64,000 nucleotides of DNA, taken from positions 1 to 64,000 of the IMG/VR virus record IMGVR_UViG_3300017917_004390; one strand, 5' to 3'. The stretch's first letter is position 1; each line of letters starts with the position of its first letter. A program made the position numbers and the translations under genes. Source of the DNA: a virus. Positions 9,592-58,372 of this stretch are shown here, piece by piece. Under the pieces are notes generated by a model. It was given only the letters and a program-made list of their open reading frames with translations, did no database searches and was not told the DNA's origin.

Positions 9592-12159
9592 TTACTTAAA
9601 TGTTAATTTAGTATTATTATCTAAATCTTTTTCGGCTACTAAAAGAAAATCGGGTTCAATTAATTCACTATGAGCGTGTTCAATAATAATTACTTTATCA
9701 ATATACCGTCTAAGTTGTCTCATTAAACCAACAAATAAACCAGCATTTTTTTCTGAAAGTTTACCAAATAATTCATCTAATAACAATATGTTTGGTTTAG
9801 AATTACGATTTAACATTCTAAGTGCTAATCTAAGTGCTATACTACTAAACACTCTTTCCATACCTGAGCCTGATTTAACATCCATTAAAATATCTGGTGC
9901 ATATTTTTTAATCATCTTAAATTCTAAATCATCATTAAGATATACATCAAAATCAACGTCAATTAAATATTCACTTAAAACATTATTAATAGTAAAAAGT
10001 CGCTGTTTAAGTATTAAACTTGGAAGTCCTTCTCTATGTAGGATTTTTTCATAAAAATCACGTATTAATTCCTCATTTTGTTGTTTTTCAAACTTTTCAA
10101 TAGTTTCATTTTTTTGTTTAATACTTTGTTGTTCATTGACAATGTAAGTATTTTTTAATGATAATCTGCGCTCATTTTTACTATTTTTTTGTGTTAACAA
10201 CTCATTGATTCTGGCATCAATTTTTTGTAATTTAATATCTATTTTATCATTTTCTTCTTTATTTTGAAGATTTCTTTCATAATCAGTAATCCTTTTGTTT
10301 TCTAAATCTATTCTTAATTCAATATTTTCAATATCAGTTGGTTTATTTTCTAAATCTTTAATAAGAAGATTTTTCTCATTAATTTTTTCTTTTATATTAT
10401 CAAATTCATGAAGTTTATGATTGATAGTCTCAAAATCAAGTTGTTTTTTAATTATTTCAGCTTCAATAATAGAGATTTTCTCTTTGTTTTTTTCAATTTC
10501 ACTATTATATTCAGTAATTTTAGTTTGATATTGAGTAATTTGGTTATTTATCTTATCTAATTTATCTTTATAATTAAAATTAAATTTTAAACTACTGATT
10601 TCATGTTCTAATCCATTAATATTTAATCTAATATTACGAATTGTTTTTTCAATTTCTGAAATAGCATCTTTATTTTTAAGTTGTTTACAAGTTGGACATA
10701 CTTTACTATTTTCAAACTGAGCAATTTCTTTTTCTTTTATTTCAATTTGACTTTGAATGCGTTTTATTTCGGCTTCAAGCTCATTATCAAGAAATTTAAT
10801 ATTTCTTTCTTCTAATGAAATTAAACCATTAGTTTTAGAGATATCATTGAGTAATTGTTCATTTTCTAATTGTATTTTTTTGATTTCATGTTTTTTATTT
10901 GACATCAAATCTTTAAAAGTGTTAAATTCATTTAAAACTAAATCATATGATTCTTTATTAAATACATACTTTTCTAACCCCGCAATTTTTTCTTTTAGAG
11001 TTTCAATTTCATGTTCTTTATTTTTCTTTTTTTCTATTAAATTTAATATATTCGTTTTAATATCATTAACATTAGTATTTAAAAGAACTAAATCTACATC
11101 TTTTTTAGTGGATAATACTTCATCTCTATAAGAATTACCCTTGCTTAACGAATCATCTAAATTTTTAATCTCAGACTCTATTGTTTGAATTTCTTTTTCA
11201 TATTCAATAATATTTAATTTATGTGTTTCAATTTGATTTTGATAATCAAGTACATCAATTTTTAATTGGGTTTCCTTCTTATATTCATCTTTTTTCCACT
11301 TTTTAAATCTTTCTAATTTCTTCTCAAACATATCTAAACCAGAATCTTTTAATATAGCAGTTAAAAATTCAGCCCTATCCATAGATAATATATCGTTAAG
11401 ATTATCAGCATTAATTAATGATAATCTAAGAAAATCTTTAAATTCACCTACAATATTCTTAAGATATTCTTGTGTTTTATTTTTATCTTGGTCAGTTTCT
11501 TGATTGAGGATATTACCTAGTTCATCAACTAAATCATATTTAACTGTGGTTGAACATGATGTGATGGATGTTTTTTTTCTATCCCATTTTCTTTCAGTCC
11601 TTCTGGTAATACAATATTGTTTACCTTCAACTGAAATAAAAATCTTAACTTGGCAATAATCTAAATTCCTATTAAAATTGATGAATTTATTATCTCTATT
11701 GGATTCTCTATCAATAGTATCTAATGTTCTACCTTGTAGTCCATAAGTTATAGAATTTAAAATATTTGAGTTATGTGAAATAATTTCATCATTAACAAAA
11801 AATTCTGGATTACCTTCTACTTGAATATCATATAAATCAATTTTTTCGTTATTAACATATACAGTTTTAGGTGTTTTAAGACCATTCCTAGTTAAAACTG
11901 GTGTATTGTTCTTTAGTACATTCAACGCACTAGTATATACCTTGGTACCATCGCCACTATCAGTTTTAAAATAATGATTTTCACTTGAAGTGACTGAGTT
12001 ATCATCAAATTCAATTGTTATGGTTTCACTATCTTTAGCTGTTATATCAACTGATTTAATTTTTTGATAACCATTAGGAGTTTCAATTTCAATATCTAAG
12101 TCAGGATTATTTTTAAAAAGTTCATATAAACTTTTAAGGTCAATATTTTGTTCTGTCAT
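9592..12159 (-). CDS. 46: C-intein fused to the C-terminal part of gp46-like recombination nuclease ATPase (Rad50/SbcC family)
   Basis: An 855-residue ORF in two parts. Residues 1-130 are the large half of a split intein ending DEIISHN; residue 131 is Ser. From S131 onward it is a Rad50/SbcC-type ATPase lacking its own Walker A: SNILNSITYGLQGR continues a P-loop, long coiled coils run ~280-720, a zinc-hook CPTC lies at 488-491, the ABC signature SGSGMER at ~763, and Walker B ILLLDELFG at ~791. The missing first part, ending GENQAGK, is encoded about 5 kb away at 17220..18527. Trans-splicing would rebuild GENQAGK-SNILNS. The ATPase works with gp47 in end resection and recombination-dependent replication. 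The start overlaps the stop of the upstream membrane gene as TAATG. Confidence 0.9.
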   Translation of the reverse strand: MTEQNIDLKSLYELFKNNPDLDIEIETPNGYQKIKSVDITAKDSETITIEFDDNSVTSSENHYFKTDSGDGTKVYTSALNVLKNNTPVLTRNGLKTPKTVYVNNEKIDLYDIQVEGNPEFFVNDEIISHNSNILNSITYGLQGRTLDTIDRESNRDNKFINFNRNLDYCQVKIFISVEGKQYCITRRTERKWDRKKTSITSCSTTVKYDLVDELGNILNQETDQDKNKTQEYLKNIVGEFKDFLRLSLINADNLNDILSMDRAEFLTAILKDSGLDMFEKKLERFKKWKKDEYKKETQLKIDVLDYQNQIETHKLNIIEYEKEIQTIESEIKNLDDSLSKGNSYRDEVLSTKKDVDLVLLNTNVNDIKTNILNLIEKKKNKEHEIETLKEKIAGLEKYVFNKESYDLVLNEFNTFKDLMSNKKHEIKKIQLENEQLLNDISKTNGLISLEERNIKFLDNELEAEIKRIQSQIEIKEKEIAQFENSKVCPTCKQLKNKDAISEIEKTIRNIRLNINGLEHEISSLKFNFNYKDKLDKINNQITQYQTKITEYNSEIEKNKEKISIIEAEIIKKQLDFETINHKLHEFDNIKEKINEKNLLIKDLENKPTDIENIELRIDLENKRITDYERNLQNKEENDKIDIKLQKIDARINELLTQKNSKNERRLSLKNTYIVNEQQSIKQKNETIEKFEKQQNEELIRDFYEKILHREGLPSLILKQRLFTINNVLSEYLIDVDFDVYLNDDLEFKMIKKYAPDILMDVKSGSGMERVFSSIALRLALRMLNRNSKPNILLLDELFGKLSEKNAGLFVGLMRQLRRYIDKVIIIEHAHSELIEPDFLLVAEKDLDNNTKLTFK
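11770..12159 (-). other. C-terminal half of a split intein (130 residues)
   Basis: This coding segment carries the intein from just after block A onward. IETPNGYQKIKSV is the post-block-A region; FDDNSVTSSENHYF holds the block B S-x-x-H motif with His62; KIDLYDIQVEGNPEFFVND is block F; and IISHN followed by Ser is block G with the terminal His-Asn and a Ser +1 nucleophile. The usual block F His is replaced (GNPEF), which is tolerated in some phage inteins. A half this large paired with a very short N-half is the 'atypical' split known from AceL-TerL-type inteins. Confidence 0.9.
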
Positions 12160-17039: not shown

Positions 17040-17239
17040 CCATTAATTATCAATGTATAATTTTTTATCAATACATCAATAATTTTAGAATATATCTTGG
17101 AAGTATTAAAATTATAATAAGCATTTCTACTCATAACCAAATTTTTAATTTTCCTTTTTGGTAAAAATATATTAATATTTTTTAATTGTAAATCTCTATC
17201 TGATAATATCAACATATTTTTATCTTTCAGATAAACCAT
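17036..17239 (-). CDS. Small ORF nested in the end of the N-intein gene, function unknown
   Basis: A 67-residue frame whose ATG (17239) lies inside the codons for the last residues of the N-intein, in a different frame. A second ATG at 17215 would give 59 residues. The sequence is basic and Ile/Leu/Asn-rich (IFLPKRKIKNLVMSRNAYY) with no family I recognise. It occupies the place where the remainder of an unsplit intein, or an associated homing endonuclease, would have been. It could be a decayed remnant or an independent small gene. Confidence 0.4.
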   Translation of the reverse strand: MVYLKDKNMLILSDRDLQLKNINIFLPKRKIKNLVMSRNAYYNFNTSKIYSKIIDVLIKNYTLIING

Positions 17240-18527
17240 ATCTAATTTTTACTCTTGTTGAAGGGTGTAAACATTTACCTGCTTGATTTTCGCCTGATAT
17301 CTGTATAATACCATTTTTATCTGATAAATCTAACTCAAATTCTTCTCCATTTGATTTAAAATTATCAATAACTAATTTATCAATACTATAACTAACATCA
17401 CCTACATTAGTTGTTTCCATTTCAGTTAATTCAGTAATTTTCTTATCTAATAAAAGTATGTCGTTAATTAATTTTTCAGGACATTTATTATCTTGAAGGA
17501 ATTTAATCATTAATTTTTCAACCTCAACAGTATCTTGTAAATCTATTAAAGATGCTTCATCTTCAATTTTACTGTTTTTACTTAATAATTTAGTTTCATC
17601 AAATTTAACATCAGTAATATTAAAAGTATCTTTAAAATATTTAATAATTTTCTTTTTATTTTCAACGGTAGCATTAACTTTATAATCCAACCATCTAATC
17701 ATTATATAATTGTAAACACCTAATTCATCAAAACTAATAGTTATATCATCATAATCAAAATCAGGTTCAATTTTTACGTTAAAATACTTATAATCACTTT
17801 TAATTTCAATCGGTTCTAAATCCATAAGACTTAAATCCCATATTACATACCCATGAAATGAATTATTACCTTCGGAATATTTGGTGCAGTATAATGATGA
17901 TGGATAACAAAAGAAAGGCTTTTTATTCTTATATTCTACTTGAAATAAATGTATATCGCCAGCCATTACTATATCACCTTTGAAATCACTTAATGATACA
18001 GCATCACCATTCTCATAGATACTTCCTGTTTCAAGACTGCAACCTTGTATTGGGTCATGAAATATGTCAATATATGTTTTATTAGGGTCTCTTTCTTGTG
18101 TGAAATCTAACCAAGGACTTTTTCTGTCTGGATGATACCAACAAGCAAATACTAAATTGCCCATTTCATACATCTTAGTTTGATTGAGATAATGAATTTT
18201 AGGATTCTTCATTATATCAACTAAGTTTTTAATTGATGAATGTCTTTGAAGGTTTAACTTCATCAAATCGTGATTACCATCGGTAATAACAACTTCAGCT
18301 ATTTCAGTTAATTTATATAAAAAATCAGCAGCTAAGGCTCTAACTTCATTAAATGGTCTTACATAATCATGGAACAAATCACCTGATATAACTATTAAAT
18401 CAGGTGATTGTTCTTTAATTGATTCTACCGTTTTGTCAGCTACGTGTTTTTGTTCTGTTAAACGACTTAAATTGTTCATAAAATGAACATCAGCCATATG
18501 AGCTATTCTAGTATATTTTTTTTCCAT
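17220..18527 (-). CDS. 47: gp47-like nuclease (Mre11/SbcD) fused to N-terminus of gp46, ending in an N-intein
   Basis: A 435-residue ORF. Residues 1-~340 are a metallophosphoesterase nuclease: MADVHF (11-16), SGDLFHD (~48-54), GNHD (84-87), FHDPI (~156) and GDIH (190-193, where GHxH is usual). From ~380 the gp46 ATPase begins (YSIDKLVIDNFKSNGEEF) and runs to the Walker A segment SGENQAGK ending at Lys418. Cys419 starts a 17-residue N-intein (CLHPSTRVKIRYGLSER) and then a stop. The product is therefore a gp47-gp46 fusion cut within the P-loop. It needs the C-half at 9592..12159 to make an ATPase. Its ATG directly abuts the upstream 66-residue gene. Confidence 0.9.
   Translation of the reverse strand: MEKKYTRIAHMADVHFMNNLSRLTEQKHVADKTVESIKEQSPDLIVISGDLFHDYVRPFNEVRALAADFLYKLTEIAEVVITDGNHDLMKLNLQRHSSIKNLVDIMKNPKIHYLNQTKMYEMGNLVFACWYHPDRKSPWLDFTQERDPNKTYIDIFHDPIQGCSLETGSIYENGDAVSLSDFKGDIVMAGDIHLFQVEYKNKKPFFCYPSSLYCTKYSEGNNSFHGYVIWDLSLMDLEPIEIKSDYKYFNVKIEPDFDYDDITISFDELGVYNYIMIRWLDYKVNATVENKKKIIKYFKDTFNITDVKFDETKLLSKNSKIEDEASLIDLQDTVEVEKLMIKFLQDNKCPEKLINDILLLDKKITELTEMETTNVGDVSYSIDKLVIDNFKSNGEEFELDLSDKNGIIQISGENQAGKCLHPSTRVKIRYGLSER
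17223..17273 (-). other. N-terminal half of a split intein (17 residues)
   Basis: Encodes Cys1-Leu-His-Pro-Ser-Thr-Arg-Val, matching intein block A (CL...T.V), right after GENQAGK of the Walker A loop, and stops 17 residues later. Block B, F and G are absent here and present in the 11770..12159 segment. Lys|Cys and Asn|Ser are the predicted splice junctions. Confidence 0.88.
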
Positions 18528-56534: not shown

Positions 56535-56981
56535 ATGAATTATACACAAGAACAGAAAGACCTATTACTTGATAAATTATTTGATGGAGTTGTTTGTCTC
56601 AATATTTATCGTAGAATTGATATTATACATAAAAATAATAAAATTTCATGGTACAAACCAAAATATAATTTTTTTTGGTTAAATTACCATCAAATATGGC
56701 AATTTTTTGAAAACAAAAATGGTTCTAATTACCAAGAAATCAAAGACTTAACTGAGGGTATCCTGAAAGACCTTATAAAACAAAAGGAACTCACAACTGC
56801 ACCCGACCGGACCTTTTGGCATATAGACCTGAAAGACCTTATAAAACAAAAGGAACTCACAACAACCGAACCATTTGTACACTCCGCTCAACTCCTGAAA
56901 GACCTTATAAAACAAAAGGAACTCACAACGCTTCCTGAATTACTTTTTGATTTTCTTAACCTGAAATACCTTACAATATGA
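56535..56981 (+). CDS. Small repeat-associated protein family, member 1 (reads through a CRISPR-like array)
   Basis: A 148-residue frame. Residues 1-~75 are the family domain: TQEQKDLLLDKLFDGVVCLN, IIHKNNKISWYKPKYNFFW, then IWQFFENKN and QEIKDLT. From residue ~76 the frame runs across three identical 36-bp repeats, giving LKDLIKQKELTT three times with unrelated residues between. As 66 bases is 22 codons, the array stays open by frame. Other family members end near the first repeat, so the true domain is probably ~88 residues and the rest is array read-through. Function unknown; no homology recognised. Confidence 0.6.
   Translation: MNYTQEQKDLLLDKLFDGVVCLNIYRRIDIIHKNNKISWYKPKYNFFWLNYHQIWQFFENKNGSNYQEIKDLTEGILKDLIKQKELTTAPDRTFWHIDLKDLIKQKELTTTEPFVHSAQLLKDLIKQKELTTLPELLFDFLNLKYLTI
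56762..56976. CRISPR. CRISPR-like mini-array, three perfect 36-bp repeats plus a truncated fourth
   Basis: Repeats at 56762-56797, 56828-56863 and 56894-56929 are identical over 36 bases (CCTGAAAGACCTTA... to ...GGAACTCACAAC). A fourth, truncated and altered, starts at 56960. Every interval is 66 bases, leaving three 30-base spacers at 56798, 56864 and 56930 that share no similarity. Two spacers are about 53% and 47% G+C by count in a genome well below that. The reverse complement starts GTTGTGAGTTCC, similar to the GTTGT..xTCCCTTT start of type II-C repeats. No cas gene is in the window. Transcribed strand unknown. Confidence 0.75.
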
Positions 56982-57265
56982 ATTATACCCAAGAACAGAA
57001 ACAATTATTACTCGATAATCTCTTTGATGGGGTTGTTTATTTTAATATTTTTGAAGATATCAATATTATTCATAGAAATCGTTTTTTTTCAATATATCAA
57101 CTAAAATATAACAAGTTTTGGTTAAGTCAACCTAACATTTGGAGATTTTTTGAAAATGAAAAAAGAAATAACTTCTATCAAATCATTGAATTAACACAAA
57201 ATATCCTGAAAGACCTTACAAAACAAAAAAATATTAGAACTGAAAACTTACGACTGAAAATTTAG
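56978..57265 (+). CDS. Small repeat-associated protein family, member 2
   Basis: A 95-residue paralogue: TQEQKQLLLDNLFDGVVYFN, INIIHRNRFFSIYQLKYNKF and IWRFFENEKRNNF. It ends ILKDLTKQKNIRTENLRLKI, the beginning of which is encoded by a diverged single repeat copy. The ATG follows directly on the truncated fourth repeat of the array. Confidence 0.6.
   Translation: MNYTQEQKQLLLDNLFDGVVYFNIFEDINIIHRNRFFSIYQLKYNKFWLSQPNIWRFFENEKRNNFYQIIELTQNILKDLTKQKNIRTENLRLKI
57205..57240. repeat. Solitary CRISPR-like repeat copy at end of member 2
   Basis: The first ~24 bases match the consensus with one change (CCTGAAAGACCTTACAAAAC); the last third is diverged. No second copy is found 66 bases further on. 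Confidence 0.55.
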
Positions 57266-57295: not shown

Positions 57296-57649
57296 ATGAC
57301 CTACACACAAGAACAAAAAGACCTCTTACTTGATAAACTCTTTGATGGAGTAATTTGTCTGGATATCTATAATAATATTGAAATTATACATAAAAATAGT
57401 AATATATCATATTATATATTTGGAAGTAATACTTTTAGATTAAGTTGGAGTAATATTTGGAAATTTTTTGAGAATGAAAAAAATGATAATCAACAAGAAA
57501 TTGAAGAATTAACATCTAATATCTTAATAGACCTTACAAAACGAGAGGGAATTAAAACACATCAACGCTATACTTCAATAGAATGGAGCGAATATCGACT
57601 TAAAAATCCGAATATTACAATTCAAGAAATAATTTTTCGTTATTTTTAA
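57296..57649 (+). CDS. Small repeat-associated protein family, member 3
   Basis: A 117-residue paralogue: TQEQKDLLLDKLFDGVICLD, IEIIHKNSNISYYIFGSNTF and IWKFFENEKNDN. After the repeat-coded LTKREGIKT it has a longer C-terminal extension (EWSEYRLKNPNITIQEIIF) not seen in others. No function recognised. Confidence 0.6.
   Translation: MTYTQEQKDLLLDKLFDGVICLDIYNNIEIIHKNSNISYYIFGSNTFRLSWSNIWKFFENEKNDNQQEIEELTSNILIDLTKREGIKTHQRYTSIEWSEYRLKNPNITIQEIIFRYF
57523..57558. repeat. Diverged CRISPR-like repeat copy in member 3
   Basis: Alignable over 36 bases with the consensus (TAGACCTTACAAAACGAGAG core, ending AAAAC) with about ten differences. Confidence 0.45.
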
Positions 57650-57688
57650 GACCATGTTTTTCGAAAAGAAACGAATAATATCTATTAC

Positions 57689-57706
57689 CCTAATAGACCT
57701 TACAAA
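57689..57706. repeat. Truncated CRISPR-like repeat before member 4
   Basis: CCTAATAGACCTTACAAA, then it breaks off 10 bases before the next ATG. This mirrors the truncated repeat before member 2. It lies in the 67-base gap 57650-57716, which holds no gene. Confidence 0.45.
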
Positions 57707-57716
57707 ATAATATTAT

Positions 57717-58040
57717 ATGAAATACACACAAGAACAAAAAGACCTACTACTTGACCGTCTCTTTGATGGAGTTGTTTTTTTTAATATATATGATACAATT
57801 CGTATTACACATATAAATAATAAAAAATCATGGTACAACCCAAAAACTAGTCTATTTTGGTTAAGCTATAGTAATATTTGGCATTTTTTTGAGAATGAAA
57901 ATATATATAATTTTCAAGAAATCAAATACTTAATTGAGCCTATCCTGAGAGACACTACAGAACGAAAGGAACTCACAACTAACGCTTGGATGGATATTGC
58001 TCGATGCTGTCTAAAAAGAAAGGAACTTACAAAACAATAA
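57717..58040 (+). CDS. Small repeat-associated protein family, member 4
   Basis: A 107-residue paralogue: TQEQKDLLLDRLFDGVVFFN, then NNKKSWYNPKTSLFWLSYSN and IWHFFENENIYNFQEIKYL. The end (LRDTTERKELTT, then a short unrelated stretch and LKRKELTKQ) is read through one full and one shortened repeat. Confidence 0.6.
   Translation: MKYTQEQKDLLLDRLFDGVVFFNIYDTIRITHINNKKSWYNPKTSLFWLSYSNIWHFFENENIYNFQEIKYLIEPILRDTTERKELTTNAWMDIARCCLKRKELTKQ
57944..58035. CRISPR. CRISPR-like repeat-spacer-repeat unit in member 4
   Basis: A 36-base repeat at 57944-57979 (30 of 36 identical to the main-array repeat), a 30-base spacer at 57980-58009 (about 47% G+C), then a shortened repeat beginning at 58010, exactly 66 bases on, which keeps both ends but lacks about ten internal bases. 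Confidence 0.6.
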
Positions 58041-58043
58041 AAT

Positions 58044-58325
58044 ATGACTTACACACAAGAACAAAAAGAACTACTACTTGACAAACTCTTTGATGGAGTT
58101 GTTTGTATGGATATCTACTATGATATTGATATTATTCATAGAAGTTATGGGTTATCATACTACAACCCAAAAACTAATGAATTTGTGTTAAGCTATAATT
58201 ATATTTGGAAGTTTTTTGAGAATGAAAATAGAGATAATTACTATGAAATCGAAGAATTAATATCTAGTATCCTGAGAGACACTACAGAACGAAAGGAACT
58301 TATAACAAATTATTGGCGGGGCTGA
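58044..58325 (+). CDS. Small repeat-associated protein family, member 5
   Basis: A 93-residue paralogue: TQEQKELLLDKLFDGVVCMD, IDIIHRSYGLSYYNPKTNEF and IWKFFENENRDNYYEIEEL, ending LRDTTERKELITNYWRG within the spacer that follows its repeat. It stops (TGA) 12 bases before the next repeat, so that last repeat is non-coding here. Confidence 0.6.
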   Translation: MTYTQEQKELLLDKLFDGVVCMDIYYDIDIIHRSYGLSYYNPKTNEFVLSYNYIWKFFENENRDNYYEIEELISSILRDTTERKELITNYWRG

Positions 58326-58372
58326 AATCGAAGACCACTGAGAGACCTTACAAAACAAAAGGAACTCACAAC
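58271..58372. CRISPR. CRISPR-like repeat-spacer-repeat unit after member 5
   Basis: Repeats at 58271-58306 and 58337-58372 with a 30-base spacer (58307-58336, about 47% G+C). The second repeat lies outside any ORF, yet matches the main-array repeat at 33 of 36 positions, better than the coding copy beside it. The 58326-58415 gap contains nothing else except a TATATTAG element. Confidence 0.7.

What the first reader, a model, noticed from the sequence alone, without database searches (positions are those of the whole stretch)
56762..56976. Phage-borne CRISPR-like array: identical 36-bp repeats with 30-bp unrelated spacers
Seen: three perfect 36-base repeats and a truncated fourth at exact 66-base intervals, with spacers that do not resemble each other. 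Equal spacing, perfect repeats and a degenerate end repeat are the defining features of CRISPR arrays, and 36/30 is the usual type II size. The reverse complement begins GTTGTGAGTTCC, in the style of type II-C repeats (established pattern: GTTGT...TCCCTTT). No cas gene is present, so the array would have to use the host's Cas9 or interfere with it.
Basis: partly seen in the sequence, partly recalled or inferred. Interest (0 to 1): 0.95.

Follow-up and report, generated by a model that had tools for sequence, protein, structure and literature searches.

The report
CRISPR-like arrays inside phage genes
Phages, including this one, carry arrays that look and grow like CRISPR memory arrays, with the repeat being the last 12 codons of a small unknown protein gene, which suggests that these viruses collect 30-letter DNA snippets in their own genes without having any CRISPR enzymes.

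Summary
In detail: three identical 36-bp repeats plus a truncated fourth, at 66-bp steps, with unrelated 30-bp spacers. Each paralog carries the same 12-codon segment, and two others hold repeat-spacer-repeat units too.

I first suspected ordinary coding repeats. Relatives in about 30 IMG/VR contigs refute that. The same 12 codons are the first repeat of arrays of up to 8 units with 29-33-nt spacers. Reading frame is lost in 22 of 27 arrays, yet repeats stay intact. Copies match the gene's own repeat, distal copies diverge, and the last is often truncated. Four near-identical phage contigs differ by exactly one repeat-spacer unit at the gene-proximal end. Codons at the repeat ends are constrained as DNA (NNTG...CANN).

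Best explanation: CRISPR-adaptation-type integration (Cas1-Cas2, probably the host's) into a phage gene end that serves as leader and first repeat. No Cas1, Cas2 or confident Cas9 was found in the phages tested. No protospacer was found, and no host array with this repeat. CRISPR type and function (guides against rivals, or decoy) remain open.

The parts
56535..56981 (+). Paralog 1 gene (148 aa): about 76-aa domain, then the array read in frame
   Evidence: homologous to the IMG/VR family by hhalign, probability 95.3%, E 2.1e-8
56762..56797 (+). Repeat 1 (gene-embedded, LKDLIKQKELTT)
56798..56827 (+). Spacer 1 TGCACCCGACCGGACCTTTTGGCATATAGA (16/30 GC)
56828..56863 (+). Repeat 2, identical to repeat 1
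56864..56893 (+). Spacer 2 AACCGAACCATTTGTACACTCCGCTCAACT (14/30 GC)
56894..56929 (+). Repeat 3, identical to repeat 1
56930..56959 (+). Spacer 3 GCTTCCTGAATTACTTTTTGATTTTCTTAA
56960..56979 (+). Truncated, degenerate terminal repeat; the next gene starts inside it (ATG at 56978)
   Evidence: terminal truncation also seen in many relatives
56978..57265 (+). Paralog 2 gene; repeat at 57205-57240, no intact second repeat (array decayed or lost)
57296..57649 (+). Paralog 3 gene; repeat at 57523-57558, decayed downstream copy at about 57685-57716
57717..58040 (+). Paralog 4 gene; repeat 57944-57979, spacer 57980-58009 (14/30 GC), internally deleted second repeat from about 58010
58044..58325 (+). 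Paralog 5 gene; its stop codon lies inside its spacer
58271..58306 (+). Paralog 5 repeat 1
58307..58336 (+). Paralog 5 spacer AAATTATTGGCGGGGCTGAAATCGAAGACC (14/30 GC), carries the in-frame stop
58337..58372 (+). Paralog 5 repeat 2, beyond the stop codon, yet 33/36 identical to the paralog 1 repeat

Best explanation
This is a phage-borne, cas-less, CRISPR-type array that uses the 3' end of a phage gene as leader and first repeat. The last 12 codons of a small, multi-copy protein gene form the 36-bp first repeat. Now and then a 29-33-bp fragment of outside DNA is integrated there while the repeat is duplicated, so the newest spacer lies next to the gene, older units are pushed downstream and decay, and only the tail after the conserved domain changes. 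SHOWN by sequence: the 36/30 architecture in several quite different repeat versions, repeat copies that match their own gene's repeat, gene-proximal presence/absence of exactly one unit between near-identical phages, decay at the far end, DNA-level constraint on both repeat ends, no Cas1 or Cas2 found in the phages. INFERRED: the insertion is done by a Cas1-Cas2 integrase supplied by the host. INFERRED, weaker: the array is transcribed with the gene and its spacers serve as guides for a host Cas effector against competing phages or plasmids.
For: Same 36 + 29-33 nt layout in relatives with quite different repeat sequences; 81 distinct spacers, 45 of them exactly 30 nt. Arrays of up to 8 repeats; frame lost or stop reached before the last repeat in 22 of 27 arrays, although the upstream domain is under protein selection (42% of single-difference codons synonymous, 19% expected). 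Repeats identical near the gene, diverging distally, last one often truncated after about 23 nt. L066, L067 and L069 against L068: one 67-bp unit more or less at the gene-proximal end in otherwise almost identical DNA. Old distal spacers are shared between related phages while proximal ones differ. First repeat codon is NTG in 30 of 31 Leu against 54 of 244 elsewhere, codon 11 is ACA in 26 of 26 Thr against 52 of 114, giving NNTG...CANN ends like the GTTG...CAAC ends of the Bacteroidota repeats fetched here. Spacers are GC-rich for their phage, clearly so in the window. No Cas1 or Cas2 in the phage records, with working controls.
Against: No protospacer found for the spacers in cultured phages, nor in the related contigs held, the window's own record included; one leader spacer gave no hit in IMG/VR outside arrays. 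No host array with this repeat in 350 Flavobacteriaceae genomes. The repeat differs between paralogs of one phage, which is odd for a host integrase that knows one repeat; inside the repeat, synonymous sites are no more conserved than upstream. No consistently strong repeat hairpin. The presence/absence case is a single event from metagenome assemblies; gain and loss, or an assembly collapse, cannot be told apart for certain.
Confidence: 0.6

Rival explanations
1. Decoy or sink: the repeat mimic at the gene end draws host Cas1-Cas2 away from the host array, so spacers captured during infection are wasted in phage DNA; the spacers themselves have no use.
For: No Cas1 or Cas2 in the phages; many copies per genome (nine domain matches in G009); repeats decay and vary between paralogs, as if only acceptance of insertions mattered.
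Against: Spacers caught during infection should often come from the infecting phage; none of the spacers matched phage DNA held here outside arrays, unless such spacers are purged.
Confidence: 0.17
2. A phage-specific array builder independent of Cas1-Cas2: insertion is directed by the gene or its product, any sequence in that position becomes the repeat, and the first spacer supplies a changing C-terminal tail.
For: Distinct repeat sequences all work within one phage, e.g. three in G009; the domain-plus-array unit also sits at the end of other genes such as Fe/Mn superoxide dismutases; the first spacer is always read as the protein tail.
Against: Tail length and sequence look random, with stops at any place; the exact 36/30 sizes and NNTG...CANN ends fit known Cas1-Cas2 products; no recombinase candidate was identified.
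Confidence: 0.15
3. Ordinary coding repeats: tandem 66-bp (22-aa) duplications in a variable C-terminal tail.
For: In paralog 1 and in L019 (3791) the array is open in frame; the 66-bp step is a multiple of three.
Against: Spacers are unrelated although repeats are identical; spacing of 65-69 and stops break the frame in 22 of 27 arrays while repeats stay intact; paralog 5 keeps its second repeat beyond a stop.
Confidence: 0.04
4. Repeat mimics acting as RNA anti-CRISPRs (Racr-like), the spacers being incidental.
For: Racrs are repeat mimics encoded in viral genomes without cas genes (PMC10651486).
Against: These are multi-unit arrays with regular unique spacers and growth polarity, and the repeats form no consistent RNA fold.
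Confidence: 0.04

Closest known systems
Virus-borne mini-CRISPR arrays of Sulfolobales viruses (Medvedeva et al. 2019, PMC6858448)
   Same: Cas-less arrays in viral genomes, unique spacers, same position with different spacers in related viruses, host adaptation machinery proposed.
   Different: Those are intergenic, with host-type repeat and leader, 1-2 spacers, many of them targeting related viruses. Here the first repeat is the coding end of a protein gene, several arrays with different repeats sit in one genome, up to 8 repeats, and neither host repeat nor targets were found.
Type VI-B (Cas13b) CRISPR arrays of Bacteroidota
   Same: 36-bp repeats; 65-66-bp steps (spacers about 30 nt) in L239; window repeat 21/36 to the Prevotella-family repeat in L240, the copy at 58337 22/36, joint best of all 36-mers in the phage.
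   Different: About 6-8 windows per strand of the phage reach 21/36; the best-matching strand differs between phages (G004); no cas13b in view; the repeat codes for protein.
Type II-C (Cas9) arrays
   Same: 36/30 sizes; repeat reverse complement begins GTTGTG.
   Different: Strict-register identity to recalled II-C repeats is no better than to VI-B; no Cas9 over the cut-off.
Solitary repeat units / RNA anti-CRISPRs (PMC10651486)
   Same: CRISPR-repeat mimics in viral genomes without cas genes.
   Different: Those are single repeats; here multi-unit arrays with unique spacers and polarity.

Membership tests
CRISPR array (general) | Near-identical direct repeats of about 21-48 bp | tested here: met
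   36 bp, identical within arrays
CRISPR array (general) | Regular, unrelated spacers of near-constant length | tested here: met
   81 distinct spacers of 29-33 nt, mode 30
CRISPR array (general) | Polarised growth at one end, degenerate far-end repeat | tested here: met
   direct presence/absence evidence is one event
CRISPR array (general) | Non-coding leader and repeats | tested here: not met
   First repeat and upstream region code for a conserved protein
CRISPR array (general) | cas genes, or a repeat shared with a cas-linked host array | tested here: inconclusive
   No Cas1/Cas2 in the phages; only a sub-cutoff Cas9-model match, in G018, not followed up; repeat pattern absent from 350 Flavobacteriaceae genomes; true host unknown
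CRISPR array (general) | Spacers match mobile elements | tested here: inconclusive
   No match in cultured phages or the related contigs held; metagenome collection not available
CRISPR array (general) | Transcription and processing to crRNA | not testable with these tools
   Needs RNA sequencing
Virus-borne mini-CRISPR arrays | Leader and repeat like those of the host | tested here: inconclusive
Virus-borne mini-CRISPR arrays | Spacers target related viruses | tested here: inconclusive
   No hit in the related contigs held
Type VI-B array | Repeat and spacer size of 36/30 | tested here: met
Type VI-B array | Repeat sequence of the VI-B kind | tested here: inconclusive
   21-22/36 in the window, strand inconsistent between phages
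Type II-C array | Repeat of the II-C kind with tracrRNA and cas9 | tested here: inconclusive
   Repeats recalled from memory only; no Cas9 over cut-off in phages; tracrRNA not tested
Coding tandem repeat | Repeat and interval kept in frame | tested here: not met
   Broken in 22 of 27 arrays

The most novel reading that the evidence does not exclude
Phages carry their own adaptive-array system: a mobile protein gene whose coding end is both leader and repeat, present in many copies per genome and also at the ends of other genes, where 30-nt fragments of foreign DNA are archived in order by a mechanism that accepts whatever repeat sequence lies there and does not need the host's CRISPR system.
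Probability: 0.25. Interest if true: 0.95.

Novelty: new variant of a known kind. Interest (0 to 1): 0.86.

Why it matters
Virus-borne CRISPR arrays are known from archaeal viruses, as intergenic copies of the host's repeat. Here bacterial phages appear to hold growing arrays inside the ends of their own protein genes, with a different repeat in each gene. If host Cas1-Cas2 does it, this shows integration into coding DNA at scale and a phage strategy against rivals or against host memory. If not, there is a second natural way to record DNA fragments in order. Either way the undescribed protein family (no Pfam, PHROG or PADLOC family above noise, no solved relative) gives a handle to find and test it.

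Tried and rejected
Ordinary coding tandem repeat: my first reading, refuted by relatives with broken frames. L001, returned by the first relative search, was rejected: only KIKDLIKQKE in an unrelated ORF. Searches with native window proteins found no real relative in IMG/VR or phages, nor did a DNA motif; an idealised sequence written from memory found the family, and native sequences were then used for every test. Spacers against own genome, related contigs, cultured phages (four hits at E = 3 are chance) and IMG/VR for one leader spacer: nothing. Rfam: no CRISPR-DR match. RNA folding: no consistent hairpin. Repeat in 350 Flavobacteriaceae genomes: none. A Cas13b fragment (recalled) found none in 395 Bacteroidota genomes, one weak partial in 297 of the Chryseobacterium family, four in 399 of the Prevotella family, which supplied real VI-B repeats. 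Similarity to VI-B repeats: the summed z-scores are inflated because the phage repeats are related to each other and because palindromic ends favour both strands; the sliding control shows it is suggestive only. The domain model is of low confidence (pLDDT 66) and gave no fold match.

Full report
WHAT IS THERE. The window is part of a 93,192-bp viral record with UvsX-like, DnaB-like and baseplate wedge genes; its baseplate protein is nearest, at about 26% identity, to Flavobacterium phage immuto and a few other phages, so a Bacteroidota host is plausible but not shown. At 56762-56979 three identical 36-bp repeats and a truncated fourth stand at 66-bp steps, with no chance expectation. They lie in frame in ORF 56535-56981, first of five tandem paralogs that share an 88-aa domain. 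The first repeat of each gene is the last 12 codons of that domain. Paralog 5 has a second, better preserved repeat 66 bp downstream, beyond a stop codon in the spacer, and paralog 4 has a degenerate one.

RELATIVES. Native queries found nothing useful. The C-terminal motif reminded me of phage proteins seen before; an idealised query from memory and then an alignment of native sequences gave about 40 loci in about 30 IMG/VR contigs. The window family matches the others over the same C-terminal stretch (hhalign probability 95.3%, E 2.1e-8). No convincing Pfam, PHROG or PADLOC family and no solved relative or fold match exists for it.

ARRAYS. In nearly every group the same 12 codons open an array: GTTGGAGGAGACCTATAATTTGAGGGGAGTCACACC (L012, six copies with the truncated last), GTTGGAAACACATGTGAAATTGGAGGGTTATACACC (L019), GTTGTGAGTACACACAATATAGAGGTGAAACACACC (L020), GCTGGAGATGACCCATAAACGAAAGGTATTTACAAC (G011) and others. 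81 distinct spacers are 29-33 nt long, 45 of them 30. In the contigs scanned whole or in large part, periodic arrays other than low-complexity coding repeats sit mainly at ends of this gene family.

NOT PROTEIN REPEATS. The domain itself is coding (121 synonymous and 166 non-synonymous single-difference codons; 19% synonymous expected by chance), but in 22 of 27 multi-unit arrays the frame is lost or stopped before the last repeat, while repeats stay intact.

GROWTH. Copies next to the gene are identical to the gene-embedded repeat; distal copies diverge and the last is often cut after about 23 nt. Four near-identical contigs from different samples differ by one 67-bp unit at the gene-proximal end. 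Some distal spacers are shared between related phages. This is the polarity of CRISPR adaptation. The single presence/absence case could also be a loss or an assembly collapse.

DNA-LEVEL SIGNAL. Synonymous sites inside the repeat are not specially conserved, but both ends are: Leu codon 1 is NTG in 30 of 31 (54 of 244 elsewhere) and Thr codon 11 is ACA in 26 of 26 (52 of 114 elsewhere). The sequences are related, so these counts are not independent, but they hold across divergent groups. The result, NNTG...CANN, is the arrangement of the GTTG...CAAC ends of Bacteroidota CRISPR repeats such as those fetched beside Cas13b in Prevotella-family genomes.

WHICH SYSTEM. No Cas1 or Cas2 in the phage records; the Cas9 model gave only a sub-cutoff partial match in G018, probably an HNH nuclease but not followed up. 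The window repeat shares 21 of 36 positions with a Prevotella-family VI-B repeat, and the copy at 58337 shares 22, joint best of all 36-mers of the record; but several other windows also reach 21-22 and in G004 the better strand is the opposite one. Type is therefore unassigned. The repeat pattern was absent from 350 Flavobacteriaceae genomes, and no protospacer was found.

MECHANISM. Shown: array architecture, polarity, end constraint, foreign composition of several spacers. Inferred: host Cas1-Cas2 treats the gene end as leader plus repeat; because the repeat is part of a selected protein it cannot easily be lost, and because it is the last part, insertions are tolerated. Less certain: spacers act as guides against rivals, as proposed for archaeal viruses (PMC6858448); the rival is a decoy for host adaptation. 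The domain-array unit also ends Fe/Mn superoxide dismutase genes in L017 and L066.

VERDICT. The array is real and unusual.

Noticed in passing
window 9592-12159 (-) and 17220-18527 (-): A SbcD/SbcC-like gene appears split in two about 5 kb apart: the upstream part ends in an intein-like start (CLHPSTRVKIRYG...), the downstream part begins with an intein-like C-terminal end before the SbcC ATPase, as in a fractured gene joined by a split intein.
   Followed up: partly
L017:2723-4216, L066:3861-5309: The array-bearing domain is fused to the C-terminus of Fe/Mn superoxide dismutases; in L018, L056 and L021 it ends other long ORFs without a Pfam match.
   Followed up: partly
L017:4485-4786; L053:4430: Several spacers begin with the same bases ([AT]ACTTGG), which may point to a motif in the captured DNA or to related sources.
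   Followed up: no
L017:5138, L052:4952, L054:4951, L063:5291, L066-L069: One distal spacer, AGTTGTGTCTCGTATGATATAAAAATAACA, is kept almost unchanged in several related phages, unlike proximal spacers.
   Followed up: partly
L066-L069, third repeat: The G run in the third repeat varies from 8 to 10 between near-identical contigs.
   Followed up: no
G018:C1:88470-88667 (L244): Partial match to the Cas9 model below its cut-off (E 9.6e-10, model positions 558-632), probably an HNH nuclease.
   Followed up: no
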